Positions 51,636 through 64,000 of a stretch of 64,000 bases of DNA are shown one piece after another (the stretch's first letter is position 1; the number at the start of each line of letters is the position of its first letter). A program made the position numbers and the translations under genes. The DNA is from Vannielia litorea (lineage in GTDB: Bacteria > Pseudomonadota > Alphaproteobacteria > Rhodobacterales > Rhodobacteraceae), in assembly GCF_900142295.1 (NCBI RefSeq), contig NZ_FSRL01000001.1, positions 1,116,001 to 1,180,000 on the forward strand, given 5' to 3'. The notes beneath the pieces are model-generated. The model was not told the DNA's origin. It worked only from the letters and a program-made list of their open reading frames with translations, and did no database searches.

Positions 51636-51712
51636 CGGGGCGTAGCGCAGCCTGGTAGCGCATCTGTTTTGGGAACAGAGGGTCGGGAGTTCGAATCTCT
51701 CCGCCCCGACCA
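51636..51712 (+). tRNA. tRNA-Pro (anticodon TGG)
   Basis: A 77-base cloverleaf with a perfect 7-base acceptor stem (CGGGGCG/CGCCCCG), a D-arm GCGC/GCGC, and anticodon stem TCTGT/ACAGA with loop TTTGGGA (anticodon TGG). The T-arm is GGGAG-TTCGAAT-CTCTC, followed by discriminator A and an encoded CCA. All arms pair with one G-U. It lies at the border between core genes and the catabolic island. Confidence 0.97.
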
Positions 51713-52034: not shown

Positions 52035-52075
52035 TTGACAGAAGCAGGCCCGCTCCATAACCTACTACATGGTAG
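52035..52075 (+). promoter_or_regulatory. tctC promoter with overlapping TetR-type operator
   Basis: TTGACA (52035-52040), a 17-base spacer and TAACCT (52058-52063) form a sigma-70-type promoter. CTACTACATGGTAG (52062-52075) starts within the -10 and covers the expected transcription start. The same operator core occurs twice before the oxidoreductase operon at 58127 and 58149. Confidence 0.75.
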
Positions 52076-52092
52076 ATAACGGAGGAGATACC

Positions 52093-53112
52093 ATGTCGGC
52101 CCTTTCAAGGATTGCCATTGTCGCGGCGGCCGCGGCCTTTGCCGCCCCGCTTGCCGCGCAGGACTACAGCTGGAAACCGGACCGTCCGATCAACATCATC
52201 GTGCCGTGGTCGGCGGGCGGATCGACCGACCAGGTCACCCGGGTCGTCGCGCCCATCCTGGAGGAGGCACTGGGCACCGAGGTCGTGGTGGTCAACCAGC
52301 CGGGGGCGTCGGGCTCGACCGGCACCAAGGCCGCGCTGGACGCCCCGCGCGACGGCTACACCTGGACCGCGAACGCCATTGCCAACAACGCCACCTATGC
52401 GGTGACCGGCCTGATCGAGAACACCTCGATCGAGGATTATCACATCTACCTGCACGTCGCGAACGTGCCGCTGGTCAGCGTCAACGCCGATGCGCCCTAC
52501 CAGACCTTTCCCGAACTGCTGGACGCCATGCAGAACGGCTCGGTCACGGTGGGCACCGCTGGGGTGAACTCCTCGGGCGGCATGGCGCTTGCGGCGATCA
52601 AGGAAAGCGCCGAGGGCGATCTGGCCGGCGCGCGGATGATCACCTATGACGGCGGCAACCCCGCGGTCATCGCTGCGGCCAGCGGCGAGGTTCAGGTGAC
52701 CACCCAGCTCGCGGTGGAGCAGACCGAGATGATCCGGGCCGGACGGCTGCGCGCTCTTGCCGTGCTCTCGGATACCGCGCTGGAGGTCGAGGGTATCGAC
52801 CCGGTGCCGCCGATCACCGACTTCATGCCCGATTTCCACGTGGCCGCGGACTACTTTGGCGTGTTCATCCCGGTGGGTGCGCCGCAGGAGGTGTATGACA
52901 CCGTCGACCAGGTCTGGCAGGATCACGTCATGAACAGCGAGGCGCTCAAGTCCTATGCCACCGACCGTGGCGCCGTCTTTGCCCCGAGCTTTGGCGAGGG
53001 CGCCCTCGAAAAGGCGATGCCGGTGGTCGTGTCCGAGGCCTGCGCCCGCGTGACCCGCGGCGAGGCGGTCGTCGATCCTTCGGAGATCGGCATCGACTGC
53101 CCGGCCGAGTAA
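52093..53112 (+). CDS. tripartite tricarboxylate transporter substrate-binding protein (TctC family)
   Basis: A 339-residue periplasmic binding protein with a signal peptide (about residues 1-22, ending LAAQD). The TctC/Bug fold shows [18 protein letters not shown] near residues 36-53, the binding-loop region [17 protein letters not shown], and the second motif [19 protein letters not shown]. Bug/TctC proteins bind carboxylates such as citrate or sugar acids. It is the first gene of tctCBA, followed by catabolic enzymes, so the ligand is presumably the substrate of the island. ATG 52093 follows GGAGGAGATACC. A hairpin after the gene may keep its level above TctBA. Confidence 0.92.
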
Positions 53113-53123
53113 GCGCGCTTCTT

Positions 53124-53151
53124 CGGGCGGGGCCCTCCGCGGCTCCGCCCG
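53124..53151 (+). terminator. hairpin between tctC and tctB
   Basis: CGGGCGGGGCC pairs with GGCTCCGCCCG (one G-U pair) around CTCCGC, 12 bases after the tctC stop. No T-run follows, so it more likely stabilises the tctC mRNA end than fully stops transcription. Confidence 0.5.
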
Positions 53152-53184
53152 GATCTGACTGCATTCAAGAGAACTGGTGATACC

Positions 53185-53670
53185 ATGCACATGGCCCTGG
53201 CGGACCGCCTTACGGCTATCCTGCTGTTCCTGCTCGGACTGGCGCTGCTCGCGGGCGGCTACACGATGGACCGGCTGGAAATCAGGCAAATCCACCCGGC
53301 CTCGATCCCCGGCCTCGTGCCGATGATCCTGGGTGTGTTGCTGTCGCTTTGCGCGGCATTGCTCTTCTGGACGTCCGTCAAGACGGACGAGCGCAACGCG
53401 GCCCTGGTGCTCTCGGGCGGGTCCTGGGCACGGCTGGGGATCACCACCACGATCTGCACGGTCTATGCGCTGGGGCTCGTGGGCTGGCTGCCGTATTTCT
53501 GGGCCACCTTCGTCTTCACCACCTGCTTTACCCTGGTCTTTTCCTTCCCTGTCGAGGGCGCGCGGCGCGCGCAGGTCATTTCGCTCGCCGGGGCCCTGGC
53601 CCTGGGGTTCGGGGTGGCGCTGGGATCTTCGCTGCTGTTCGAGAAGCTCTTCCTGGTGCGGTTGCCATGA
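53185..53670 (+). CDS. tripartite tricarboxylate transporter small membrane subunit (TctB family)
   Basis: A 161-residue membrane protein with four hydrophobic segments (about residues 10-28, 44-62, 85-118 as a split pair, and 132-155), the TctB pattern. TctB is the small membrane subunit that partners TctA; it is poorly conserved but always adjacent. A first ATG at 53185 and a second Met at the third codon are both possible. Its stop overlaps the tctA start (ATGA). Confidence 0.85.
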   Translation: MHMALADRLTAILLFLLGLALLAGGYTMDRLEIRQIHPASIPGLVPMILGVLLSLCAALLFWTSVKTDERNAALVLSGGSWARLGITTTICTVYALGLVGWLPYFWATFVFTTCFTLVFSFPVEGARRAQVISLAGALALGFGVALGSSLLFEKLFLVRLP

Positions 53671-55190
53671 GCGGGCTGGGCGATCTTCTCTCCGGGCTGG
53701 GCACGTTGCTCACGCCGACGATGCTGTTTCATGCGGCATGGGCCACGCTTCTGGGCATCGTGGTGGGCTCCTTGCCGGGTCTGACGGCGACGATGGGCGT
53801 GGCGCTGATGACCACGCTGACCTATTCGCTGGATTCCACCTCCGCGATCTTCGTGCTGATCTGCATGTATGTCGGTGCGATCTATGGCGGCTCGCGCAGC
53901 GCGATCCTGCTCAACATTCCCGGCACGCCCGCCAGTGCGGCGACCTCGCTGGACGGCTATCCGCTGGCCAAGCAGGGGCGGGCGGGCTACGCGATGGGGC
54001 TGGCCACTGCGGGCTCGGCCCTGGGCACGCTGGCGGGCGTGCTGATGCTGGTGCTGATCGCGCCGCCCCTGGCCGAGGCCGCGCTGAACTTCGGCAGTTT
54101 CGAGTTTTTCTGGCTGGCGGTCTTCGGCATCCTGATTTCCGGCCAGCTGACCGCCGACACCACGGCGCTCAAGGGCTACATCGCCGGGCTGCTCGGGCTC
54201 GCGGTTGCGATGATCGGCTCGGAGGGCATTCACGCGCATGTGCGTTTCAACCTCGGGATCCAGGACCTGAACGCCGGCATCGCGCTGATCCCGGCGATGG
54301 TCGGGGCCTTCGGCTTTGCCGAGGTGCTGACGGCGATGTGGAACCGCGCGGGCGAGTTGGCGGTGAAGAAGGACAAGAGCGACCGGACGATCCCGCACTT
54401 CGTGGATCTCTGGCGCTACAAGTTCACCATCGCGCGCTCGGGGCTGATCGGCACGCTTGTGGGCATCATTCCTGGCGTGGGCGAGGATATCGGGGCCTGG
54501 GCCAGCTATGCCGCCGCGCGCAAGACATCGAAGGAAAAGGAAAAGTTCGGACACGGCAGCCATGAAGGCCTGCTCGCCGCGGAAACCGGCAACTCCGCCG
54601 TGGTGCCCGGTTCGCTGATCCCGGCTATCACGCTGGCGGTGCCCGGCTCGGCCTCGGCGGCGGTGCTGATTGCCGCGCTCTTCATCCACGGCATTCGGCC
54701 CGGTCCGCTGATCATGATCGAACAGCCGCATTTCGTGGGGCTCATCAGCGCCATGGTGCTGATCGCCACGCTGTTCATGGCGTTTTATGGTCTCACCCTG
54801 ACCAAGGCCTTCGTGCAGGTGCTCAAGGTGCCCTACAGCTACCTGATGCCGGTGGTCTTCGTGCTTTGCGTGATCGGAACCTACGCGCTGAGCCAGAGGG
54901 TCTTCGACATCTGGATCATGGTGTTCTTCGGGCTGGTGGGCTTTGTCCTGCGGCAGATGAAATACCCGATGGCGCCGCTGGTGCTGGGGATCATCCTGGG
55001 CGACCTGCTCGACAAGAGCCTTCGGCGCGGGCTGACGCTGAGCGATGGCGAGCTGGCTCCGTTCTTCACGCGGCCGGTATCGGCGGCCTTCGTGGCGCTG
55101 ATCGTGCTGTCGATCGCGATGAACCTGCCCGTGGTCCGGCGTGTGGCGCTGGCGCCGTTTCGCTGGATCGGGGCGCGGTTCAATGCTTGA
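53667..55190 (+). CDS. tripartite tricarboxylate transporter large permease (TctA family)
   Basis: A 507-residue permease with about 10-12 membrane helices. Family signatures are GIVVGSLPGLTATMGVALM near residue 30, YGGSRSAILLNIPGTPASAATSLDGYPLAKQG (quoted in parts), and GIIPGVGEDIGAWASYAAARK. PGSASAAVLIAALFIHGIRPGP near residue 335 is also typical. It uses a cation gradient to import the ligand delivered by TctC. The frame is open far upstream, but the ATG at 53667 overlaps the tctB stop. Its own stop lies 8 bases inside the next gene, so translation is coupled to the TIM-barrel enzyme. Confidence 0.93.
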   Translation: MSGLGDLLSGLGTLLTPTMLFHAAWATLLGIVVGSLPGLTATMGVALMTTLTYSLDSTSAIFVLICMYVGAIYGGSRSAILLNIPGTPASAATSLDGYPLAKQGRAGYAMGLATAGSALGTLAGVLMLVLIAPPLAEAALNFGSFEFFWLAVFGILISGQLTADTTALKGYIAGLLGLAVAMIGSEGIHAHVRFNLGIQDLNAGIALIPAMVGAFGFAEVLTAMWNRAGELAVKKDKSDRTIPHFVDLWRYKFTIARSGLIGTLVGIIPGVGEDIGAWASYAAARKTSKEKEKFGHGSHEGLLAAETGNSAVVPGSLIPAITLAVPGSASAAVLIAALFIHGIRPGPLIMIEQPHFVGLISAMVLIATLFMAFYGLTLTKAFVQVLKVPYSYLMPVVFVLCVIGTYALSQRVFDIWIMVFFGLVGFVLRQMKYPMAPLVLGIILGDLLDKSLRRGLTLSDGELAPFFTRPVSAAFVALIVLSIAMNLPVVRRVALAPFRWIGARFNA

Positions 55191-56013
55191 GTATGCCCTG
55201 TGCAACGAGCTCTTGGCCGAGGAAGGCCTGCCCCTGGCCGAGCAGGCGCGCACCGCCGCCGCGTTGGGGTATTGCGGGCTCGAACTGGCGCCCGCCACGC
55301 TGGGGTATGCGCTGCATGATCTGACCGGCGACGAGATTGCGCGGATCCGGGCCGAGATCGAGGCCGAGGGCCTGCGCGTCACCGGGCTGCACTGGTTGCT
55401 CAGCGGCTATCCGGACCTTTCGATCACCGATCCGGCGGTGCAGGGCCGGGCGCAGGCCGTACTGCTGAAGCTGGTGGCGCTCTGCGCGGCGCTCGGCGGC
55501 GAGGTTCTGATTCACGGCTCGCCGAAGCAGCGGCGGCGCCCGCAGGGCATGGACGATGGTGCGCTGATCGCCCATCTGGCTGCCTTTTTCGGGCCGGTGG
55601 CGGAGGCGGCGGAACGGCACGGCGTGGTGTATTGCATCGAGCCGCTGTCGCGCGCCGAGGACGACACGATCACCACCGTGGGGCAGGGGGCTGAGCTGGC
55701 GCGGGCGATCGGCAGCCCGGCCTTCAAGACCATGATCGACATCAGCGCCGCGGGCCAGACCGAGCCGCCGGTGGCCGAGCTGATCCGCGAATGGGTGCCG
55801 ACCGGCCTGATCGGGCATGTTCACGCCAACGACACCAATCGCGGCGCGCCGGGGATGGGCGATGACCCGTTTCCCGAGATCGTCGCCGCGCTGGTCGAGA
55901 CCGGCTGGAGCCGGCCCGTGGGGGTCGAGCCCTTTCGCACCCTGATCGACGCGCGCGTTACCGCCGCCACCGGAATTGCCACCCTGCGTGCTTGTGAAAG
56001 GGCCTGTTCATGA
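55183..56013 (+). CDS. xylose-isomerase-like TIM-barrel protein (sugar isomerase/epimerase type), first copy
   Basis: A 276-residue AP-endonuclease-2-type TIM barrel. Metal-ligand positions typical for this group are visible: Glu in YCIEPLSRAED, Asp in KTMIDISAAGQ, His in IGHVHANDTN and Glu in VGVEPF. Relatives include hydroxypyruvate isomerase and D-tagatose 3-epimerase. It is coupled to tctA at its start and overlaps the enolase-superfamily gene by four bases at its end. It is one of three such barrels in this island, so a role in isomerising the imported substrate or a derivative is likely. Confidence 0.85.
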   Translation: MLEYALCNELLAEEGLPLAEQARTAAALGYCGLELAPATLGYALHDLTGDEIARIRAEIEAEGLRVTGLHWLLSGYPDLSITDPAVQGRAQAVLLKLVALCAALGGEVLIHGSPKQRRRPQGMDDGALIAHLAAFFGPVAEAAERHGVVYCIEPLSRAEDDTITTVGQGAELARAIGSPAFKTMIDISAAGQTEPPVAELIREWVPTGLIGHVHANDTNRGAPGMGDDPFPEIVAALVETGWSRPVGVEPFRTLIDARVTAATGIATLRACERACS

Positions 56014-57329
56014 CAATGCTCACGATCCTCTCGGCCAGCTGGTCGGAACGCCCTGTCGTCATGCGGCTGCCCTTCCAGTTTGGCAGCACCGAGGTCCGCG
56101 AGACCGCCGAGGCGCATGCCCGCGTCGAGATCGAGGTCGAGGGCACGCGGGTTTCGGGGCGGTCGGCGCAGCTGATGGTGCCGCGCTGGTTCAACAAGAG
56201 CGCCGAGATGAGCAACGCGGACACCATCGACGAGTTGCGCGCGGTCGTGAACCGTGCGGTGGCCGAGGCCTCCGGTCTGCGCGGCACGGCGCTGGAGGTG
56301 ACGCGCGAGTTGCGGGCCAGCCTGGATCGGGCCTTGCCGAACACACCGCCGCTGGCGCGGTGCTTCGGGCCTGCGCTGGTTGAAATGGCGATGATCGACG
56401 CGCTGTGCACGGCCCTCGGTTTGCCCTTCTGGACGGCGGCGCGGGAGGATGCCTTCGGGCTGGTCCGCGGTTGCCCCGACGATCTGTCGCCCGCAGATCT
56501 GTCGCGGTCGTTGGCCGCGATCTCTGCACCGAAAGCTCTTGTTCTGCGCCATACCGTCGGTTTCGACGCCCCCCTGCGGCGGCAGGATGTCGGGGCGGAC
56601 CGCCCAGGCGACGGGCGGCCGGTTTCGCTGGACGAGGTGATCGAGGCGACCGGCGTTTCGGCCTTCAAGATCAAGCTCAAGGGCGACCCGGAGGCCGATC
56701 ACCGCCGCCTGCGCGACATCGCCGGGCTGCTGGACGCGGGCGGCGACTATGCGGTGACGCTGGATGCCAACGAACAATATGCGCCCGGCGACTTCGGCGC
56801 CTTCCTGGGCGCGCTTTCCGAGGATGGGGCGCTGGCGCGTTTCACCTCGGCGGTTCGCTTCGTGGAGCAACCCTTTCCGCGCGAGATTGCCCTGGCCGCA
56901 CCCGTCGTGGCGCCGCTTCCGCTGATCATCGACGAGAGCGACGACGCAGAGGATGCCTTTGCCCGCGCCCTGGCCCTTGGCTGGTCGGGCACCTCGATCA
57001 AGAGTTGCAAGGGCGTGCTCAGGGCGCTGATCAACAAGGCGCGTGCCGATGCCGCGGGGGCCATCCTGTCGGGCGAGGACCTGACCTGTCAGCCCGGCAT
57101 CTGCTGGCTACAGGACGCGGCGATGATGTCGGCCTGCGGTGTGCGCGACGTCGAGCGCAACGGCCACCATTTTGCCGGCGGTCTGCAGGGCGCGCCGGAG
57201 GACGAACGCGCGATCCTGCTGGAGCGCCATGACGATATCCTGACGCAGGATGCCGACGGAGTAGCGCTTCGGATCGCCGGTGGCCGCGTCGGGATTGGCT
57301 CTCTGGCCCGGCCGGGCTTCGGCTGGTAA
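56010..57329 (+). CDS. enolase-superfamily enzyme (mandelate racemase/muconate lactonising type, divergent)
   Basis: A 439-residue protein with a capping N-terminal domain (residues 1-130) and a modified TIM barrel. Catalytic-type residues are Lys-x-Lys in FKIKLKGDP (about 220), metal ligands Asp in LDANEQY, Glu in RFVEQPF and Asp in LIIDESDD, and a late Lys in SIKSCKG. All three metal ligands remain, so an active enzyme that abstracts a proton alpha to a carboxylate is likely. Possible roles are acid-sugar dehydratase, epimerase or cycloisomerase. It is fused into the tctCBA operon by four-base overlaps. Subfamily is not assignable by eye. Confidence 0.78.
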   Translation: MTMLTILSASWSERPVVMRLPFQFGSTEVRETAEAHARVEIEVEGTRVSGRSAQLMVPRWFNKSAEMSNADTIDELRAVVNRAVAEASGLRGTALEVTRELRASLDRALPNTPPLARCFGPALVEMAMIDALCTALGLPFWTAAREDAFGLVRGCPDDLSPADLSRSLAAISAPKALVLRHTVGFDAPLRRQDVGADRPGDGRPVSLDEVIEATGVSAFKIKLKGDPEADHRRLRDIAGLLDAGGDYAVTLDANEQYAPGDFGAFLGALSEDGALARFTSAVRFVEQPFPREIALAAPVVAPLPLIIDESDDAEDAFARALALGWSGTSIKSCKGVLRALINKARADAAGAILSGEDLTCQPGICWLQDAAMMSACGVRDVERNGHHFAGGLQGAPEDERAILLERHDDILTQDADGVALRIAGGRVGIGSLARPGFGW

Positions 57330-57378
57330 GGAGGAAGGCACCCTGGCGCGGGGGATCGCACGACCAACGAGAGGGCGC

Positions 57379-58041
57379 ATGGCCAAGCACGTTACCCCGA
57401 TCCGGAAGGACCGCAAACGCAACCCGGAAGTAACCCGGGCCGCCATCCTTCACGCCGCGCTGGAGGAGTTCAGCGAGGTTGGCCACTCGGGCGCCCGTGT
57501 CGACCGCATCGCCGCGCGGGCCGGTGTCAGCAAGCCGATGATCTATGATTACTTCGGCGACAAGGACGCGGTTTATGCCGCCGCACTCCGCGAAGCCTAT
57601 GTTCAGATCCGCCAGGGTGAGATGACGCTGAACCTCGACAGGCTGGAGCCTGAAGAGGCGGTGCGGGCGCTGGTGCATTTCACCATGAACCACTTCTGGA
57701 ACAACCCGTGGTTCATCCGGATGCTGAACACCGAGAACCTTATGGGCGGCGAGACGGTCCGGACGCTGGACGACGCCACCGAGATCCAGTCGGTCCTGTT
57801 GCGCCGTGTCGAGGAAATCCTGCGGCGCGGCAACACCTCCGGGCAGTTCCGTTCTTCGATCGACCCGGTGGAGCTTTACATCTTCATCGCCTCTGTCTGC
57901 TGGTTTCCGATCTCCAACATGCACACGCTCAGCACGGTGTTTCGCGCGCCGATTTCGGAAGACTGGCTGAGGGACCACGCCGACAAGGCCGCGGACATGA
58001 TCGTGCGCTATCTGCGGCAGTCCGACAAGGACGCCGGCTAG
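57379..58041 (+). CDS. TetR family transcriptional regulator
   Basis: A 220-residue regulator with an N-terminal helix-turn-helix (about residues 20-62; VTRAAILHAALEEFSEVGHSG, then VDRIAARAGVSKPMIYDYFGDKDAVY, given in parts). The C-terminal ligand domain has LIFIASVCWFPISNMHTLSTVF-like hydrophobic helices, as in the TetR_C group with a buried pocket. It is the last gene of the tct operon. The CTAC-GGTAG palindromes before tctC and before the oxidoreductase operon are its most likely targets. AGGGCGC lies before the ATG at 57379, and the frame is open upstream to 57280. Confidence 0.88.
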   Translation: MAKHVTPIRKDRKRNPEVTRAAILHAALEEFSEVGHSGARVDRIAARAGVSKPMIYDYFGDKDAVYAAALREAYVQIRQGEMTLNLDRLEPEEAVRALVHFTMNHFWNNPWFIRMLNTENLMGGETVRTLDDATEIQSVLLRRVEEILRRGNTSGQFRSSIDPVELYIFIASVCWFPISNMHTLSTVFRAPISEDWLRDHADKAADMIVRYLRQSDKDAG

Positions 58042-58100
58042 GCTCTCCCGACAGGTCCGGCTCCCCCCGGGCAGACCCGAAAAGCGCGGTGCCGAGAGCA

Positions 58101-58128
58101 TTGATCCTTGACTCGATTCTCATAACCT
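58101..58128 (+). promoter_or_regulatory. promoter of the oxidoreductase operon
   Basis: TTGATC (58101-58106), a 16-base spacer and TAACCT (58123-58128). The string CATAACCTACTA is shared with the tctC promoter, so both -10 regions are embedded in the same operator context. Confidence 0.6.
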
Positions 58129-58140
58129 ACTAAACGGTAG
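58127..58140. promoter_or_regulatory. TetR-type operator 1 of the oxidoreductase operon
   Basis: CTACTAAACGGTAG, an imperfect palindrome that overlaps the promoter -10, matching the site at 52062 in 11 of 14 positions. Confidence 0.7.
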
Positions 58141-58148
58141 CTTAGAGT

Positions 58149-58162
58149 TTACCGGATGGTAG
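58149..58162. promoter_or_regulatory. TetR-type operator 2 of the oxidoreductase operon
   Basis: TTACCGGATGGTAG, starting 22 bases after operator 1 (two helical turns). It fits the same core and lies 15 bases before the small leader ORF start. Confidence 0.65.
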
Positions 58163-58177
58163 CTTGCGGGAGGATTC

Positions 58178-58279
58178 ATGAACGACATCGGGATTTCCTG
58201 GCTCCGCCCGTGCAGATCAACGGCACCCAAGCGCCGCGCGCGCCCGAATGACGCCAAGAAGAGGGAAGCAAGACAATGA
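58178..58279 (+). CDS. short leader ORF coupled to the oxidoreductase gene
   Basis: A 33-codon frame (MNDIGISWLRPCRSTAPKRR, then a basic tail ending KKREARQ) with an unusually strong ribosome site (GGGAGGATTC). Its TGA overlaps the ATG of the oxidoreductase (ATGA at 58276), so ribosomes finishing it could restart on the main gene. The peptide is Arg/Lys-rich with no signal peptide. It may be a regulatory upstream ORF or the remnant of a gene start. It is real only if translated, which the sequence suggests but cannot prove. Confidence 0.45.
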   Translation: MNDIGISWLRPCRSTAPKRRARPNDAKKREARQ

Positions 58280-59427
58280 CCACACAACGCATCGGCATCA
58301 TCATGCACGGCGTCACCGGGCGCATGGGGATGAACCAGCACCTGATCCGTTCGGTCCTGGCGATCCGCAACGAAGGCGGCATGCTGCTCAAGTCCGGCGA
58401 CCGGCTGGTGCCGGATGTGATCATCGTCGGGCGCAACGAGAAGAAGATCGCCGAACTGGCCGCGAAGCATGGGGTCGACCGCTATACCACCGATCTCGAT
58501 GCGGCGCTGGCCAATCCCGACGATACCATCTTCTTTGACGCGGCCAGTACCCAGATGCGCCCCGGGCTGCTGCGCAAGGCGATCGACGCGGGCAAGCACG
58601 TGTATTCGGAAAAGCCGGTGTCCGAAGGGCTGGAGGAGGCGATTGCGATTGCCAAACACGCCAAGGCCAAGGGCGTGAAGAACGGCATCGTGCACGACAA
58701 GCTGGACCTGCCGGGCCTGCTGAAGCTCAAGCGTCTGCGTGACAGCGGGTTTTTCGGCAAGATCCTCTCGGTGCGCGGCGAGTTCGGCTACTGGGTCTTC
58801 GAGGGCGACTGGATGGCGGCCCAGCGCCCCTCCTGGAACTACCGCAAGGAGGACGGTGGCGGCATGGTCTCGGACATGCTCTGCCATTGGCGTTACGTGC
58901 TCGACAACGTGGTGGCCCCGGTCAAGGCGGTGAACTGCACGGCCGTCACCCACATCCCCGAGCGCTGGGACGAGAACGGCGAGCGCTACGACGCCACCGC
59001 CGATGACGCGGCCTATGCCACCTTCGAGCTGGAAGGCGACATCATCGCCCAGCTCAACAGCTCCTGGTGCACCCGCGTGCGGCGCGACGACCTGGTGACC
59101 TTCCACATCGACGGCACCCATGGCAGCGCCGTGGCGGGGCTGCACACCTGCTACAGCCAGGCGCGGGTCAACACGCCCAAGCCGGTCTGGAACCCCGACC
59201 AGAAGCAGACGATGAACTTCTTCGAAGACTGGGTGGAAGTGCCTGACAACAAGGACTTCGACAACGGCTTCAAGGTGCAGTGGGAGCAGTTCCTGCGCCA
59301 TGTGGTCGAGGATGCGCCCTGGTCCTACACGCTGGAAGAGGGCGCCAAGGGCGTGCAACTGGCGGAGCTGGGCTACAAGAGCTCGCAAGAGCGTCGCTGG
59401 CTCGACGTGCCGGCGCTCGACATCTGA
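58276..59427 (+). CDS. Gfo/Idh/MocA family oxidoreductase
   Basis: A 383-residue NAD(P)-dependent dehydrogenase. The N-terminal Rossmann region is IGIIMHGVTGRMGMNQHLI (an atypical Gly pattern with VTGRMG). The conserved lysine of the family lies in VYSEKPVSEG, near residue 115, and the C-terminal sheet domain follows from about 135. Members oxidise or reduce sugars, inositols or their acids at a ring hydroxyl. It is the first enzyme gene of the second operon of the island, with the DUF993 aldolase-like gene 10 bases downstream. The start overlaps the leader ORF stop. Confidence 0.9.
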   Translation: MTTQRIGIIMHGVTGRMGMNQHLIRSVLAIRNEGGMLLKSGDRLVPDVIIVGRNEKKIAELAAKHGVDRYTTDLDAALANPDDTIFFDAASTQMRPGLLRKAIDAGKHVYSEKPVSEGLEEAIAIAKHAKAKGVKNGIVHDKLDLPGLLKLKRLRDSGFFGKILSVRGEFGYWVFEGDWMAAQRPSWNYRKEDGGGMVSDMLCHWRYVLDNVVAPVKAVNCTAVTHIPERWDENGERYDATADDAAYATFELEGDIIAQLNSSWCTRVRRDDLVTFHIDGTHGSAVAGLHTCYSQARVNTPKPVWNPDQKQTMNFFEDWVEVPDNKDFDNGFKVQWEQFLRHVVEDAPWSYTLEEGAKGVQLAELGYKSSQERRWLDVPALDI

Positions 59428-59437
59428 GGGGGCGGAC

Positions 59438-60592
59438 ATGGCACAACTGATCCTTCCCACGGCAGACGGCGGCACTGCGCCGCTGGACCTCACCGCAGGC
59501 CCGGTGCCCGCACCGGGCGGCACCTGGACCCGCACTGCCTATGCTGCGGCCCACGTCGTCGCTGACCCGCTAGCCGAGGTGGACCCGGGCGATGGCGTTG
59601 CCGTCGACTGGGACCGCACGCTCGCCTTTCGCCAGCATCTGTGGTCGCTCGGCCTGGGCGTGGCCGAGGCGATGGACACCGCGCAGCGCGGCATGGGGCT
59701 GGACTGGGCGACCTCGCTGGAGCTGATCCGGCGCAGCATGGACGCGGCCCCGGAAGGCGCGCTGATCGCCAGCGGGGCAGGGACCGACCACCTGGCCCCC
59801 GGCCCGGAGGTGACCGTGGACGACGTGATCGCCGCCTACGAGATGCAATGCGAGGCGGTCGAGGCGACCGGCTCCCGCGTGATCCTGATGGCCAGCCGTG
59901 CCCTGGTGCGGGCGGCGAAGGGGCCGGAGGATTATGCCCGCGTCTATGGCCGCGTGCTCTCGGGTCTCAGGCAACCGGCGATCCTGCACTGGCTGGGCGA
60001 AATGTTCGATCCGGCGCTGGCGGGCTACTGGGGCAACGCCGACCACATGGCCGCGATGGACACCTGCCTCTCGGTGATTGCCGACAATGCCGACAAGATC
60101 GACGGCATCAAGATCTCGCTGCTCTCGGCGGAAAAGGAAATCGCCATGCGTCGCCGCCTGCCCGAGGGCGTGCTGATGTACACCGGCGACGACTTCAACT
60201 ACCCCGAGCTGATCAAGGGCGACGACCAGGGCTATTCCCACGCGCTGCTGGGCATCTTCGACCCCATCGCCGGGGCCGCCTGCCGGGCGCTGAACGCGCT
60301 GGCCGAAGAGGACGCCGCCGCTTATCACGCGGCTTTCGACCCCACGGTGCCGCTCAGTCGCCATATCTTCAAGGCGCCGACGCGGTTCTACAAGACCGGG
60401 GTGGTCTTCATGGCCTACCTGATGGGCCACCAGGACCATTTCACCATGGTCGGCGGCCAGGAAAGCGCCCGCTCGACACTGCACCTGGCCGAGGCGATCC
60501 GGCTGGCCAATGCCGCGCAGCTCTTCACCGACCCCGACGAGGTGGTGCGCCGCGCGACGCCGGTGTTTCAGGCGCGGGGGGTCTGGGCATGA
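59438..60592 (+). CDS. DUF993 protein (dihydrodipicolinate-synthase-like aldolase)
   Basis: A 384-residue TIM-barrel protein of the DUF993 family, annotated elsewhere as a DapA-like aldolase/dehydratase. The probable Schiff-base lysine is K225 in DGIKISLLSAE. Further markers are PAILHWLGEMFDPALAGYWG, LMYTGDDFNYPELIKGD and FMAYLMGHQDHFTMVGGQES. Its substrate has not been established as far as I know. It is coupled to the next gene by ATGA and follows the oxidoreductase after 10 bases, so it probably cleaves or dehydrates the oxidised product. The ATG at 59438 follows GAGGGGGCGGAC. Confidence 0.85.
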   Translation: MAQLILPTADGGTAPLDLTAGPVPAPGGTWTRTAYAAAHVVADPLAEVDPGDGVAVDWDRTLAFRQHLWSLGLGVAEAMDTAQRGMGLDWATSLELIRRSMDAAPEGALIASGAGTDHLAPGPEVTVDDVIAAYEMQCEAVEATGSRVILMASRALVRAAKGPEDYARVYGRVLSGLRQPAILHWLGEMFDPALAGYWGNADHMAAMDTCLSVIADNADKIDGIKISLLSAEKEIAMRRRLPEGVLMYTGDDFNYPELIKGDDQGYSHALLGIFDPIAGAACRALNALAEEDAAAYHAAFDPTVPLSRHIFKAPTRFYKTGVVFMAYLMGHQDHFTMVGGQESARSTLHLAEAIRLANAAQLFTDPDEVVRRATPVFQARGVWA

Positions 60593-61413
60593 GGACGCTG
60601 ACCGCTGCCGACCTTTCACTGAACACCGCCACCGTGTCGAAGCAATGGAGCCTCGAGGAGTGCATCGAGGGCTGCAAGCGCCACGGCATCGGAGGCATCT
60701 CGCCCTGGCGCGACAAGTTGCAGGAATGCGGTGTGGACCGGGCTGCAAGGCTGATCCGCGAGGCGGGGCTGGGCGTGTCGGGGCTTTGCCGGGGCGGCTG
60801 GTACACCGCGGAGGGGGCGCTGACGCAAAAGGTGATCGACGACAACAAGCGGGCCGTCGATGAGGCCGCCGCCATCGGGGCGGAAACCCTTGTCATGGTC
60901 GTGGGTGGGCTGCCCCAAGGCTCCAAGGACCTGGTTTCGGCGCGCGAGGTTGTCACCGAGGGGCTGGCGAAAACGCTGGACTATGCCCGCACCCAGGGCG
61001 TGAAGGTCGGTATCGAGCCGCTGCACCCGATGTATGCCGCCGACCGTGCCTGCGTGAATACCACGGGGCAGGCGCTGGATATCTGCGACCGGCTGGGCGA
61101 CGGCATCGGCGTTGCGCTCGATGTCTATCACATCTGGTGGGACCCGGAGATTGCCGCCCAGATCAAGCGCGCCGGAAAGGAACGGATCCACGCCTTCCAC
61201 GTCTGCGACTGGATGAACCCGACGCAGGATCTGCTGACCGATCGCGGCATGATGGGCGAGGGGGTGATCGACATTCCCACCTTCCGCCAGATGGTCGAGG
61301 CCGAAGGCTTCGACGGGTTGGTCGAGGTCGAGATCTTCTCGGCCGAGAACTGGTGGAAGAAGCCGGCCGACGATGTGCTTGCAGCCATGGTGAAGGCGCT
61401 TCCGGCCATCTAG
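60589..61413 (+). CDS. xylose-isomerase-like TIM-barrel protein, second copy
   Basis: A 274-residue sugar phosphate isomerase/epimerase-type barrel. Metal-ligand candidates are Glu in GIEPLHPMYA, Asp in VALDVYHIWWD, His in IHAFHVCDWMN and Glu in VEVEIFSAE. It begins MRTLTAADLSLNTATVSKQW and carries GIGGISPWRDKL in the first turn. It is coupled to the DUF993 gene by a four-base overlap, making a three-enzyme unit (oxidoreductase, aldolase-like, isomerase-like). It differs clearly from the copies at 55183 and 63710, so it is not a recent duplication. Confidence 0.87.
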   Translation: MRTLTAADLSLNTATVSKQWSLEECIEGCKRHGIGGISPWRDKLQECGVDRAARLIREAGLGVSGLCRGGWYTAEGALTQKVIDDNKRAVDEAAAIGAETLVMVVGGLPQGSKDLVSAREVVTEGLAKTLDYARTQGVKVGIEPLHPMYAADRACVNTTGQALDICDRLGDGIGVALDVYHIWWDPEIAAQIKRAGKERIHAFHVCDWMNPTQDLLTDRGMMGEGVIDIPTFRQMVEAEGFDGLVEVEIFSAENWWKKPADDVLAAMVKALPAI

Positions 61414-61440
61414 GGACGGCGACAGATAGAGCGCAAAATT

Positions 61441-61455
61441 TGCAAAAAACTTGCA
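61441..61455. promoter_or_regulatory. candidate LacI operator before the LacI gene
   Basis: TGCAAAAAACTTGCA, preceded by GCGCAAAATTTGC (61431-61443). It lies 79 bases before the LacI gene start and resembles the motifs at 62600-62654. Confidence 0.6.
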
Positions 61456-61533
61456 TTGCCCTCCCGTTCGGTCAAGAACAGGGAGGGCACTCGTATTTTC
61501 GCCCGGAAGAACGAACGGTCGGGGAGTGAGTTG

Positions 61534-62586
61534 ATGCGCCATTCGAAGGTCAGGCAGGAAGATATCGCGCGGGTGGTCGGCGTGTCGGTTTCGACGGTGT
61601 CCCGGGTCTTGTCCGGCGCGCCGGGCATAAGCCCCGCCACGACGCAGAAGGTGTTGCGCGCCGCAGCCGACCTCGGCACGCCGATCACTTTGCCGGGCGA
61701 CGGCGGCGGCCTGGTGACTCACCGCATGGAACGGGCCTTGCTGTTTCTCAAGCAGGTCGACTTGAACTCCGGCTCGGGGTCGATCTATCACTTCGTGATG
61801 ACCGGCATCCAGAAGGCGGCGCGCAAATACGGACTGCGGGTCGAGCTGGCGCTGCTGGGCGAAGATGGCGAGATTCCCGAGCGGATCCTGGGCGGTGCGG
61901 AGACCGGGGTCCTGTTCGCGGGTGTCGATCCGTCGCCCAAGCTTTTGAAGAAACTGCGAGAAACCGGAAATTCGGCGGTGCTGGTCAATGGCCTCGATCC
62001 GTCGATGACCCATGACCAGGTGGCGCCGAACAATTACCAGGGCGGGTGGCTGGCCGCGCAGCACTTTCTGGACATGGGTCACCGCCGCATCCTTCAGCTG
62101 GGGACCGCGCGACGCCTGACCCTGGCGGCGCGCACCCAGGGCTTTCTCGACGCCATCGCTCAAGCGGGCATGGACGGGCTGGACTGCGATTTCATCGAAA
62201 TCGGCAACGTGACCGAACAGGCCGCGCAGGTCGCCCTGAAGCAGATTCTGAGCGAGTCGGCATTTCCCTACACCGCGGTTTTCTGCTCGGCCGATATCGT
62301 CGCGCTCACGGTCATGCAGGAGCTGCGGATGCGGGAAATCGACGTGCCGCGCGAGGTGTCGCTGCTCGGGTTCAACGGGCTTCCGCTGGCGGAATTCTCC
62401 TCGCCGCTGCTCAGCACGCTCTACGTGGACTGGGAGTATCTGGGCCACGAAGCGATTCGCCTGTTGTGCACGAGAAGCGCCGAACCGGACAGGCCGACGC
62501 AACAGGTTCAGACACAGGTCATTCTCAAGCAGGCCGAAACGGTTGCGGACTTGTCAAATCGCAGTGATTTCAACGCCTTGGGCTAG
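61534..62586 (+). CDS. LacI family transcriptional regulator
   Basis: A 350-residue regulator. The N-terminal DNA-binding domain is QEDIARVVGVSVSTVSRVLSG (in parts, about residues 6-26), followed by the hinge region and a periplasmic-binding-protein-like effector domain (about 65-335; NYQGGWLAAQHFLDMGHRRI and VFCSADIVALTVMQEL). Ligands of the family are usually sugars or sugar derivatives. The ATG at 61534 follows GGGGAGTGAG. A-rich palindromes flank the gene on both sides, suggesting autoregulation and control of the hydroxyacid dehydrogenase operon. Confidence 0.9.
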   Translation: MRHSKVRQEDIARVVGVSVSTVSRVLSGAPGISPATTQKVLRAAADLGTPITLPGDGGGLVTHRMERALLFLKQVDLNSGSGSIYHFVMTGIQKAARKYGLRVELALLGEDGEIPERILGGAETGVLFAGVDPSPKLLKKLRETGNSAVLVNGLDPSMTHDQVAPNNYQGGWLAAQHFLDMGHRRILQLGTARRLTLAARTQGFLDAIAQAGMDGLDCDFIEIGNVTEQAAQVALKQILSESAFPYTAVFCSADIVALTVMQELRMREIDVPREVSLLGFNGLPLAEFSSPLLSTLYVDWEYLGHEAIRLLCTRSAEPDRPTQQVQTQVILKQAETVADLSNRSDFNALG

Positions 62587-62599
62587 CGTTGCAAAGTAA

Positions 62600-62654
62600 T
62601 GCAAAAACTTGCATTATTGCGTAAAAACTTGCGCTTGAGTGCAAAAAGTGCAAA
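62600..62654. promoter_or_regulatory. cluster of candidate LacI operators before the dehydrogenase gene
   Basis: Three related elements in 55 bases: TGCAAAAACTTGCA (62600-62613), TTGCGTAAAAACTTGCGC (about 62617-62633) and GTGCAAAAAGTGCAAA (62639-62654). The first matches the element upstream of the LacI gene except for one extra A there. They occupy most of the gap between the LacI stop and the next gene. Confidence 0.65.
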
Positions 62655-62690
62655 CCTTGCCGGGACGCGTTGTGTCACTGGGAGGTTTGG

Positions 62691-63713
62691 ATGCGCTATT
62701 CGTCACTGGTTCAGCTCGCGCAGCCGGAATTCGAGATTCACTTTCCGACCGCCTGCCGCGACGCGCATCTTGCCCGGCTGAGCGCCGCCACGAACCTGCT
62801 GCATCCCGAGCCGATTGCCGACCTTCAAGGCTGCGACGCCGCGACGCGGCTGGCCGAGGTGGATATCCTCGTGACCGGCTGGAAATCCGGCCGGATCGAT
62901 GCGGAGCTGCGCCGCAAGATGCCCCGACTGAAGCTCGTGGCCCACCTGGCGGGCACGGTGAAGGGCATTCTCGACCGTGATGCCGCGTCGTCGGGCCTGA
63001 CGGTGATCAGCGGGGCCGAGGCCAATGCGCGCCCGGTGGCGGAATTCACCCTGGCGCATATCCTGCTGCACCTGAAACGCGTGGAAGAATGGCGCAGGGT
63101 CTACCGCAGCCAGCGCACGCGCATTGCGACCCGCAGGACCATATTGGCCGGGCCGGTCGGCAACACCGGCCGCACCGTCGGGATCATCGGTGCATCGCGG
63201 ATCGGGCGCCGGGTGGCCGAGGATCTGCGCCGCCACCGGGTCTCCGTCCTGCTGCACGATCCTTTCGTGAGTGCCGAGGCGGCGGCGGGTTTTGGCGCGA
63301 AGAAGGTATCGATGGACGATCTGTTGGCGCAGAGCGACGTGGTCAGCCTGCACCAGCCGCTGCTGCCGTCGACCGAGCGCAGCTTCGGGGTGTCGGAATT
63401 TGCCCGGATGCAGGACGGGGCGCTGCTGATCAATACCGCGCGGGGGCGGATCATCGACGCGCAGGCGCTCGAAACCGCGATGGCGGATGGCCGGCTTTTT
63501 GCGGTGCTCGACGTGACCGACCCCGAACCCCTGCCGGACGCCTCGCCCCTCTGGGACATGCCCAACGTCACCCTGACGCCGCATATCGCGGGCTCTTTCG
63601 GCTGCGAGGTCTGCGACATGACCCAGCTGGTGCTCGAAGATATCGAGCGTTTCACCCGCGGCGAACCGTTGCAGAACGAGGTGATCATGGCGGATTGGGA
63701 GCGCGTGGCATGA
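62691..63713 (+). CDS. D-2-hydroxyacid dehydrogenase family protein
   Basis: A 340-residue NAD-dependent 2-hydroxyacid dehydrogenase. The dinucleotide loop is GIIGASRIGRRVAEDL (about residues 164-179). The catalytic triad is visible as Arg in LLINTARGRIID, Glu in DVTDPEPLPDAS and His in LTPHIAGSFG. It would interconvert a 2-keto acid and its 2-hydroxy acid. GGGAGG lies 8 bases before the ATG at 62691. Candidate LacI operators fill the upstream gap, and the stop overlaps the next gene (ATGA). The N-terminal half is divergent from glyoxylate and phosphoglycerate dehydrogenases, so the substrate is open. Confidence 0.9.
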   Translation: MRYSSLVQLAQPEFEIHFPTACRDAHLARLSAATNLLHPEPIADLQGCDAATRLAEVDILVTGWKSGRIDAELRRKMPRLKLVAHLAGTVKGILDRDAASSGLTVISGAEANARPVAEFTLAHILLHLKRVEEWRRVYRSQRTRIATRRTILAGPVGNTGRTVGIIGASRIGRRVAEDLRRHRVSVLLHDPFVSAEAAAGFGAKKVSMDDLLAQSDVVSLHQPLLPSTERSFGVSEFARMQDGALLINTARGRIIDAQALETAMADGRLFAVLDVTDPEPLPDASPLWDMPNVTLTPHIAGSFGCEVCDMTQLVLEDIERFTRGEPLQNEVIMADWERVA

Positions 63714-64000
63714 TCCGGCCCGGCCTCTGCTCTGTCACCTTCCGCGCGCTCGATGCCGAGGCTGTTGTCGATCTGGCGGCGCAATCCGGTGTCGAGGCGA
63801 TCGAATGGGGCGCCGACAAGCATGTGCTGCCCGGCGATGCGGATCACGCCCGCCGCATCGGCGATCTTTGCCGCGCGCGCGGGATCGTGCCCGCATCTTA
63901 CGGCTCCTACGTCCGCGCGGGCACGTCGGAGGCGGTGCAGAACTTCGGCCCGGTGCTGGACACCGCCAGGGCGCTGGGGGCCACGAACATCCGGGTCTGG
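63710..64000 (+). CDS. xylose-isomerase-like TIM-barrel protein, third copy (cut by window end)
   Basis: The first 97 codons of a sugar phosphate isomerase/epimerase-type barrel (MIRPGLCSVTFRALDAEAVV at the start; VEAIEWGADKHVLPGD; ALGATNIRVW at the edge). The start overlaps the hydroxyacid dehydrogenase stop (ATGA), so it is the next gene of the same operon. The remainder, including metal ligands, lies outside the window. It is the third barrel of this class in 9 kb, and its N-terminus resembles neither of the other two closely. Confidence 0.8.
   Translation, partial: MIRPGLCSVTFRALDAEAVVDLAAQSGVEAIEWGADKHVLPGDADHARRIGDLCRARGIVPASYGSYVRAGTSEAVQNFGPVLDTARALGATNIRVW

What the first reader, a model, noticed from the sequence alone, without database searches (positions are those of the whole stretch)
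52035..64000. Probable undescribed catabolic system: TTT importer, three TIM-barrel isomerases, enolase-superfamily enzyme, Gfo/Idh/MocA, DUF993 and hydroxyacid dehydrogenase
Eleven enzyme, transport and regulator genes follow each other on one strand with mostly four-base overlaps. TctC-type proteins import carboxylates. An enolase-superfamily enzyme acts next to a carboxylate. A Gfo/Idh/MocA enzyme oxidises a sugar-like ring, DUF993 looks like a class I aldolase (K225), and a D-2-hydroxyacid dehydrogenase handles a keto/hydroxy acid. I infer a route for a sugar acid or cyclitol-derived acid. I know of no described pathway with exactly this set.
Basis: partly seen in the sequence, partly recalled or inferred. 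Interest (0 to 1): 0.75.

Follow-up and report, generated by a model that had tools for sequence, protein, structure and literature searches.

The report
Undescribed bacterial sugar-acid breakdown gene set
A bacterium carries a conserved but uncharacterised set of genes that probably imports an acidic sugar-like compound, oxidises and rearranges it, and cuts it into small pieces for food; relatives of its core enzymes have solved structures but no function that we could find.

Summary
The genes are real and the family names right, but the stretch is not one operon. It holds at least three units. Units 1a (TctCBA-TIM1-enolase-TetR) and 1b (Gfo/Idh/MocA-DUF993-TIM2) share a 16-base operator-like element whose only two matches with up to 2 mismatches in the 4.1-Mb genome lie upstream of tctC and gfo. 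Unit 2 (LacI-hydroxyacid dehydrogenase-TIM3) has its own operator-like repeats and continues beyond the window into a peptide-type ABC importer and a DUF2264 protein related to a uronate dehydratase. GFO-DUF993-TIM2 is the core: GFO is adjacent in 77 of 81 loci, in several phyla. DUF993 has the dihydrodipicolinate-synthase fold with an invariant lysine on barrel strand 6; the enolase homologue is muconate-lactonising-like. Orthologues of all three core proteins are in the PDB without a function that we found; DUF993 and PF06187 occur in no paper of the open-access library searched. Best reading: oxidation, isomerisation, then Schiff-base retro-aldol cleavage of a sugar-acid-type substrate, giving a 2-oxo acid (perhaps hydroxypyruvate) that is reduced to glycerate. 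Module: near certain; chemistry: inferred; substrate: unknown.

The parts
52059..52074 (+). operator-like element (AACCTACTACATGGTA) upstream of tctC, probably for the local TetR
   Evidence: one of only two matches to WACCTACTAGTNGGTA with up to 3 mismatches in the window, 0.10 expected, and with up to 2 in the whole genome
52093..53112 (+). TctC, solute-binding protein of a tripartite tricarboxylate transporter
   Evidence: PF03401 2.1e-17; Bug/TctC chains, best 4x9t 6.2e-25
53185..53670 (+). TctB, small membrane subunit
   Evidence: PF07331 1.3e-11
53667..55190 (+). TctA, large membrane subunit
   Evidence: PF01970 1e-135
55183..56013 (+). TIM1, xylose-isomerase-like TIM barrel, nearest to D-psicose/D-tagatose 3-epimerases
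   Evidence: PF01261 1.7e-30; profile to 7x7w 1.3e-30; E152, D185, H211, E248 invariant in 15 of 15
56010..57329 (+). ENO, enolase-superfamily protein of muconate-lactonising (MLE) type
57379..58041 (+). TetR-family regulator (TetR_C_29)
   Evidence: PF00440 3.1e-14, PF17938 8.3e-33
58124..58139 (+). operator-like element (AACCTACTAAACGGTA) upstream of gfo
   Evidence: second of the two matches
58276..59427 (+). GFO, Gfo/Idh/MocA dehydrogenase, first enzyme of the core
   Evidence: PF22725 3e-22 and PF01408 3.3e-8; orthologue 3oqb 8.6e-219; K113, D200, H204 invariant in 17 of 17
59438..60592 (+). DUF993, DHDPS-fold protein, predicted class I (Schiff-base) retro-aldolase
60589..61413 (+). TIM2, xylose-isomerase-like TIM barrel, predicted isomerase of the core
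   Evidence: PF01261 2.9e-42; orthologues 3ju2 (SMc04130), 3qc0, 7vpf; E143, D178, H204, E246 invariant in 17 of 17
61441..61455 (+). LacI-type operator candidate upstream of lacI
   Evidence: TGCAA-N5-TTGCA, one of two matches to TGCAA-N2..6-TTGCA in 64 kb, 0.16 expected
61534..62586 (+). LacI-family regulator, start of unit 2
   Evidence: PF00356 9.3e-12, PF13377 6.9e-27
62597..62616 (+). LacI-type operator candidate upstream of HDH (TAATGCAA-N4-TTGCATTA)
62691..63713 (+). HDH, D-2-hydroxyacid dehydrogenase (2-oxo acid reductase)
   Evidence: PF02826 8.2e-48; below the cut-off of all 21 NCBIfam models listed
63710..64000 (+). TIM3, third TIM barrel (continues outside the window to 64501; L003:710-1501)
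   Evidence: PF01261 4.8e-18; only solved chain matched is AsbF 3dx5 1.7e-15

Best explanation
A TetR-controlled catabolic regulon for a sugar-acid-type carboxylate. TctABC imports the acid. TIM1 (ketose-3-epimerase-like) and the MLE-type enolase homologue act as an optional entry module that converts stereoisomers or lactone/enol forms of the acid. The core then runs: GFO oxidises a secondary alcohol to a ketone, TIM2 isomerises or epimerises next to it, and DUF993 forms a Schiff base through K225 and cleaves the chain by retro-aldol. One product is a short 2-oxo acid, most likely hydroxypyruvate or its isomer tartronate semialdehyde, which a D-2-hydroxyacid dehydrogenase (here HDH) or, in relatives, a GarR-like reductase turns into glycerate. 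The adjacent LacI unit (HDH, TIM3, peptide-type ABC importer, DUF2264 protein) probably feeds the same chemistry from a uronate-containing glycoside. Shown: gene content, linkage, folds, conserved catalytic-type residues, shared operator-like elements. Inferred: order of reactions, substrate class, product, regulator binding, role of each isomerase.
Against: I found no assay of any core protein. The position of the DHDPS catalytic tyrosine is an invariant histidine (H184) in DUF993, so it is not a standard DHDPS/NAL enzyme and may dehydrate, decarboxylate or act otherwise. TIM3 is rare (2 of 295 and 2 of 385 genomes, own included), and G349 has HDH-TIM3-DUF2264 while no DUF993 was listed for it. 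Reductase clustering is partly circular: three of the ten loci supplied the queries, all queries came from near DUF993, and two hits are only 25-27% identical; the GarR-like and glycerate-kinase-like proteins stay below their NCBIfam equivalog cut-offs, and SDR-clade records L121 and L124 list no glycerate kinase. Some DUF993 genes sit beside sugar ABC importers or NitT/TauT importers, so the substrate need not enter as an acid in every host. The element is absent at up to 3 mismatches near the core in the stretches held of several relatives, at up to 2 in all of G007, and before gfo in P. pantotrophus; a match like the one in L136 arises in 13 of 200 shuffles of that 20-kb stretch.
Confidence: 0.5

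Rival explanations
1. DUF993 does not cleave a C-C bond but, like the 5-keto-4-deoxyglucarate and 3-deoxy-2-keto-acid dehydratases of the same fold, dehydrates and/or decarboxylates the ketone made by GFO; downstream enzymes are outside the cluster.
For: The same superfamily holds dehydratase/decarboxylases (established knowledge); H184 at the usual tyrosine position; no aldehyde dehydrogenase among the nine genes of unit 1.
Against: Recurrent hydroxypyruvate/tartronate-semialdehyde-type reductases and glycerate-kinase-family genes near DUF993 fit a C3 cleavage product better, with the limits told above.
Confidence: 0.25
2. The core handles a cyclitol or an alicyclic acid: GFO acts like an inositol dehydrogenase, TIM2 like IolI or IolE, and DUF993 opens or splits the product.
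For: TIM2's best match outside its own uncharacterised orthologues is IolI (1i60, 1.1e-17); GFO relates to scyllo-inositol dehydrogenase (5ya8, 2.2e-16); TIM3's only solved match is AsbF, a 3-dehydroshikimate dehydratase (function recalled).
Against: GFO scores far below the IolG equivalog cut-off (57 of 355 bits) and TIM2 matches no inositol equivalog except IolO, a keto-gluconate epimerase, at 41 of 300 bits; TctABC and an MLE-type protein point to a carboxylate. IolB, IolC and IolD were not searched for.
Confidence: 0.15
3. Two unrelated neighbours: unit 1 (TctABC to TIM2) and unit 2 (LacI-HDH-TIM3-ABC-DUF2264) serve different substrates and sit side by side by chance.
For: Separate operator types; Phycocomes zhengii L033 has unit 1 without unit 2 in the 9 kb that follow; unit 2 is on another contig than DUF993 in G094, and present where no DUF993 was found in G349.
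Against: HDH-TIM3 sit beside GFO-DUF993-TIM2 in two Paenibacillus loci (L067, L074); HDH and DUF2264 lie near DUF993 in L104, DUF2264 in L039; in G094 the unlinked unit 2 carries a TetR-type element like that of unit 1.
Confidence: 0.25

Closest known systems
Uncharacterised Sinorhizobium meliloti SMc04130-SMc04133 cluster (PDB 3ju2, 4dnh)
   Same: orthologous TIM2 and DUF993 with solved structures; SMc04133 is called a putative oxidoreductase in PMC12542648 (one table passage); an orthologue of GFO (Bradyrhizobium, recalled) is 3oqb
   Different: transport differs: SMc04135 is named an amino acid or peptide ABC solute-binding protein; no function found
DHDPS/N-acetylneuraminate lyase superfamily (class I aldolases, dehydratases)
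   Different: 10-18% identity, about 90 residues longer, His instead of Tyr on strand 5, own Pfam family
Muconate lactonising / dipeptide epimerase subgroup of the enolase superfamily
   Different: no Pfam MR_MLE hit at 1e-3; profile matches only 2.7e-7 to 8.4e-4
D-psicose/D-tagatose 3-epimerases
   Same: TIM1 profile 1.3e-30 to 7x7w and the same metal-site quartet (quartet of the epimerases recalled)
   Different: 57.8 bits against a 300-bit equivalog cut-off
GH154-type uronate dehydratase BcGDH (PMC12269599)
   Same: DUF2264 protein of unit 2 matches 9o4u at 1.4e-24 over residues 87-358
   Different: extra C-terminal domain; none of the eight unit-2 genes looks like a GH88/GH105 hydrolase (permeases and ATPase named by eye)
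D-apionate, inositol, levoglucosan and glyoxylate/tartronate-semialdehyde routes
   Same: use members of the same superfamilies (GFO, TIM barrels, reductases; recalled)
   Different: none of the window proteins reaches an NCBIfam cut-off of these routes; apionate compared from memory only

Membership tests
DHDPS/NAL class I aldolase superfamily (DUF993) | (beta/alpha)8 barrel of DHDPS type | tested here: met
DHDPS/NAL class I aldolase superfamily (DUF993) | Schiff-base lysine on strand 6 | tested here: met
   K225 invariant in 18 and 37 sequences; strand 221-227 is the sixth barrel strand of the model by my count; position in DHDPS recalled; no residue-level superposition seen
DHDPS/NAL class I aldolase superfamily (DUF993) | catalytic tyrosine at the end of strand 5 | tested here: not met
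   invariant H184-W185 on strand 181-186; so not filed as a DHDPS
DHDPS/NAL class I aldolase superfamily (DUF993) | aldol cleavage or condensation activity | not testable with these tools
   needs an enzyme assay
Enolase superfamily, MLE subgroup (ENO) | capping plus barrel fold of the superfamily | tested here: met
Enolase superfamily, MLE subgroup (ENO) | KxK on strand 2, three acidic metal ligands, lysine on strand 6 | tested here: met
   K220/K222, D252/E286/D308, K331/K334 invariant in 15 of 15, strands; MLE pattern recalled
Enolase superfamily, MLE subgroup (ENO) | Pfam MR_MLE match | tested here: not met
   no Pfam family at 1e-3
Tripartite tricarboxylate transporter | TctA, TctB and TctC together | tested here: met
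   all three above Pfam cut-offs and adjacent
myo-Inositol pathway | IolG-type dehydrogenase | tested here: not met
   GFO 57.4 bits, cut-off 355
Levoglucosan pathway | levoglucosan dehydrogenase | tested here: not met
   GFO 72.1 bits, cut-off 650
Glyoxylate carboligase type route | hydroxypyruvate isomerase equivalog | tested here: not met
   TIM1 33.4 and TIM2 35.2 bits, cut-off 353; a similar function is not excluded
D-apionate pathways | Apn/Oia enzyme set | not tested
   set recalled, no model searched by name

The most novel reading that the evidence does not exclude
DUF993 founds a new functional branch of the DHDPS fold: a class I aldolase that splits non-deoxy oxo sugar acids into hydroxypyruvate and an aldehyde, giving a phosphorylation-free, dehydration-free sugar-acid pathway spread over Pseudomonadota, Bacillota, Chloroflexota and Actinomycetota, with interchangeable entry modules (TctABC with epimerase and enolase homologue, NitT/TauT importer, sugar ABC importers, or a peptide-type importer with a uronate dehydratase), several of them under one TetR-type operator.
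Probability: 0.2. Interest if true: 0.75.

Novelty: new variant of a known kind. Interest (0 to 1): 0.52.

Why it matters
DUF993 is a widespread protein of unknown function with a solved orthologue; orthologues of its operon partners GFO and TIM2 are also solved and, as far as we found, unassigned. The linkage, the operator-like element and the reductase and glycerate-kinase associations turn three orphan structures into one testable pathway, in a model organism (S. meliloti) as well as in roseobacter-type bacteria, and could explain how many soil and marine bacteria use a sugar acid that is not yet recognised as a common growth substrate.

Tried and rejected
A single operon was rejected. Promoter/terminator scans gave nothing above chance (1 promoter-like site against 1.4 expected, 4 terminator-like against 6.7), but the operator-like elements split the stretch.

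Known-pathway matches were tried through NCBIfam; none of the twelve window proteins reached a cut-off (TIM3 as its 97-residue window part). Literature: no paper with DUF993, PF06187 or DUF2264; SMc04129-SMc04134 gave two papers, passages seen, no function; PDB codes gave one unrelated paper, listing only; combined gene names gave one reconstruction paper, passages seen, that predicts TTT importers for aldarates and galactonate; hydroxypyruvate/aldolase/glycerate kinase terms gave two general papers, listing only; GH154 searches led to PMC12269599, abstract and passages seen; a last locus-tag search gave two papers, one of them the one above, nothing on function in the listing.

Profile comparison of DUF993 with the DHDPS-like family c25 found no useful match, with three DHDPS sequences only a weak one (E 5.6e-4, probability 30%); the fold comparison decided. 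Glycerate kinase was sought in the 81 loci by BLAST (E 1e-12, 60% coverage) without a hit; it is near DUF993 in plasmid records and in L026.

The TetR-type consensus was read from eight loci including the window, so hits there are partly circular. In the other 73 loci two hits with up to 3 mismatches occurred, both in L074, none upstream of the core. In the own genome the reversed control pattern is commoner than the real one at up to 3 mismatches (56 against 11); no control at up to 2 was run there. In the seven genomes the control at up to 2 exceeded or nearly equalled the real pattern in every one, so hits are used only with their position; hits far from the core were found and not explained in G094, G209, G232 and G263. 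The TGCAA repeat was also matched once each in L041, L045, L066, L081, L098 and L122, away from any unit-2 gene as far as known, and once inside HDH of L136. A first palindrome search had also given a longer consensus with weaker specificity: 15 matches at up to 4 mismatches in the 80 loci against 23 expected from base shuffles and none at up to 3 in the window.
Full report
What is there. The stretch holds twelve plus-strand genes, TctC, TctB, TctA, TIM1, ENO, TetR, GFO, DUF993, TIM2, LacI, HDH and the start of TIM3. The window is bases 1116001-1180000 of contig C1 of a 4.1-Mb genome; the closest named relative among the loci is Phycocomes zhengii (91% identity in DUF993). Four of eleven junctions overlap by four bases (TctB/TctA, TIM1/ENO, DUF993/TIM2, HDH/TIM3), TctA/TIM1 by eight, and six are gaps, the largest 234 bases before gfo. 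Beyond the window the same strand continues with the rest of TIM3, a family-5 solute-binding protein, two permeases, a fused ABC ATPase and a DUF2264 protein (permeases and ATPase named by eye).

Three units. A 16-base imperfect palindrome, consensus WACCTACTAGTNGGTA, was read from shared words upstream of tctC and gfo in the window and seven relatives. In the window it has two matches with up to 3 mismatches (0.10 expected; 1 of 100 shuffles had two), 19-34 bases before tctC and 137-152 bases before gfo; in the whole genome these are the only two with up to 2 mismatches. In the seven relatives all 12 matches listed with up to 3 mismatches, two of them overlapping, lie within 220 bases upstream of tctC, gfo or tetR, zones that make up 2.3% of the bases of all 80 loci (partly circular because the consensus came from them). 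Outside that set, Palleronia L118 has a 3-mismatch match before both tctC and gfo, and G094 a perfect match before gfo; G057 and G152 have matches with 0 and 2 mismatches 35 and 24 bases before tctC-like genes. In G094 a 2-mismatch match lies 90-105 bases before HDH, the first gene of the HDH-TIM3-ABC-DUF2264 run, which there is on another contig than DUF993; one such match is found in 13 of 200 shuffles of that 20-kb stretch, so its place, not its presence, is the argument. In Paracoccus pantotrophus a 2-mismatch match begins 40 bases before an aldehyde dehydrogenase-sugar ABC-GMC oxidoreductase cluster near GFO-DUF993-TIM2-glycerate kinase, but none lies before gfo. Several relatives have no match in the stretches held (L004, L005, L006, L014, L024, L030, L117, L127-L129), most of which do not reach upstream of tctC, and G007 has none with up to 2 mismatches in its whole genome. 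I read the element as the operator of the local TetR; binding is not shown.

Unit 2 has another repeat, TGCAA-N2..6-TTGCA: its only two matches in 64 kb (0.16 expected; 1 of 100 shuffles had two) lie before lacI and between lacI and HDH, with spacers of 5 and 4. Matches with spacers of 3 and 2 also lie before the lacI of the corresponding units in G094 (L136, 35-47 bases) and Rhizobium sp. R635 (L104, about 23 bases before the start used; an upstream TTG start would overlap it). So LacI-HDH-TIM3-ABC-DUF2264 is read as a separate unit; it is conserved as such in G094. TIM3 is rare: 2 of 295 family genomes and 2 of 385 class genomes, own included in both.

The conserved core. Among 81 loci (80 best of 581 relatives in genome contigs plus the window) a GFO gene is immediately beside DUF993 in 77, TIM2 is next to DUF993 in 69 and within 10 kb in 78; TetR is within 10 kb in 62, ENO in 42, TIM1 in 18, TctA in 23, a NitT/TauT-type SsuB in 26. 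Many of these species are related and 16 loci lack full flanks, so the numbers are descriptive. TIM1 goes with TctA (13 of 16 TIM1 loci against 7 of 49 others among the 65 loci with at least 6 kb on both sides; Fisher p 1.8e-6 without correction for relatedness). In 295 genomes of the family (own included) DUF993 is in 60, in none of 14 control genomes; GFO at 69% identity or more is in 11 and abuts DUF993 in all 11, and two weaker GFO matches (44-48%) are in genomes for which one search lists no DUF993; ENO has nine places in eight genomes, seven of them within 4 kb of DUF993. In 385 class genomes DUF993 is in 35. In a tree of 119 DUF993 proteins 90 have GFO beside them, including Paenibacillus, Thermosporothrix and Arthrobacter loci, 20 have a short-chain dehydrogenase instead (with one member without either they form one clade, support 0.997), 7 neither and 2 are cut.

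How it probably works. TctABC suggests a carboxylate. GFO has the K-D-H residues of active Gfo/Idh/MocA dehydrogenases (pattern recalled; residues). A ketone next to a carbon that TIM2 can isomerise is the natural substrate of a Schiff-base lyase such as DUF993. What the cleavage yields is hinted at by reductases: GarR-like or D-2-hydroxyacid dehydrogenase hits occur in 10 of 81 loci and 9 of these are within 3.1 kb of DUF993. Three of the ten are the query loci themselves; leaving those out, 6 of 7 are that close. Two hits are only 25-27% identical to the query, one lies on the opposite strand, and the GarR-like proteins tested (L093, L097) stay below the equivalog cut-offs. Paracoccus pantotrophus L116 and SDR-clade loci L119, L120 and L026 add a glycerate-kinase-family protein, also below the NCBIfam cut-off where scanned (L116, L119); L121 and L124 list none. 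I therefore propose hydroxypyruvate or tartronate semialdehyde, reduced to glycerate. The uronate link comes from DUF2264: it matches the B. caccae beta-glucuronate dehydratase BcGDH (1.4e-24), whose activity and the proposed reclassification of GH154 are described in PMC12269599 (abstract and passages read).

What is not shown. The substrate, the reaction order, the cofactor, the function of ENO, TIM1 and TIM3, and regulator binding are inferences. Other DUF993 genes sit beside sugar ABC or NitT/TauT importers, so the acid may be formed inside the cell there. No description was found in the open-access library; most subscription papers are not in it.

Verdict. A real, conserved, probably co-regulated catabolic core with exchangeable entry modules, plus a neighbouring LacI unit that is probably but not certainly part of the same metabolism. 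New variant of a known kind.

Noticed in passing
window 51636-51712: A tRNA-Pro (tgg) gene lies about 380 bases before tctC; the cluster might be an island inserted beside it.
   Followed up: no
L003:9311-17879 (about 72.3-80.9 kb in window numbering, outside it): An opposite-strand block follows unit 2: fumarylacetoacetate-hydrolase family, DHDPS family, two classical enolase-superfamily proteins and a sugar ABC importer, apparently a further sugar-acid cluster.
   Followed up: partly
L119, L120, L124 (also L121 and Rhodobacteraceae-like loci such as L007-L010): A second DUF993 clade has a short-chain dehydrogenase in place of GFO; in L119, L120 and L124 it sits with acyl-CoA dehydrogenase, ETF, CoA-transferase, enoyl-CoA hydratase, GMC and aldehyde dehydrogenases: an unexplained pathway of its own.
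   Followed up: partly
L123:11992-23695: In a Streptomyces plasmid a DUF993 gene is followed directly by a type I polyketide synthase.
   Followed up: no
L043:5651-6727 and ten further loci: A distinct DHDPS-like family (c25, about 355 aa) lies near DUF993 in 11 of 81 loci, in 7 of them two genes before it; 8 of the 11 loci also hold an NAD-dependent epimerase family, c35.
   Followed up: partly
L056, L060, L062 and other Bradyrhizobium loci: In these Bradyrhizobium loci the core and ENO follow a NitT/TauT-type importer instead of TctABC; its ligand would help to name the substrate.
   Followed up: no
PMC12542648 (one table passage): SMc04132, SMc04133 and SMc04135 are listed together with negative values in module 6 of an S. 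meliloti AniA/PhaR study table, which may mean co-regulation; the column meaning was not checked.
   Followed up: no
L048, L079, L108: A phytanoyl-CoA dioxygenase family gene (c73) lies on the same strand 2.7-5.4 kb before DUF993 in three loci.
   Followed up: no
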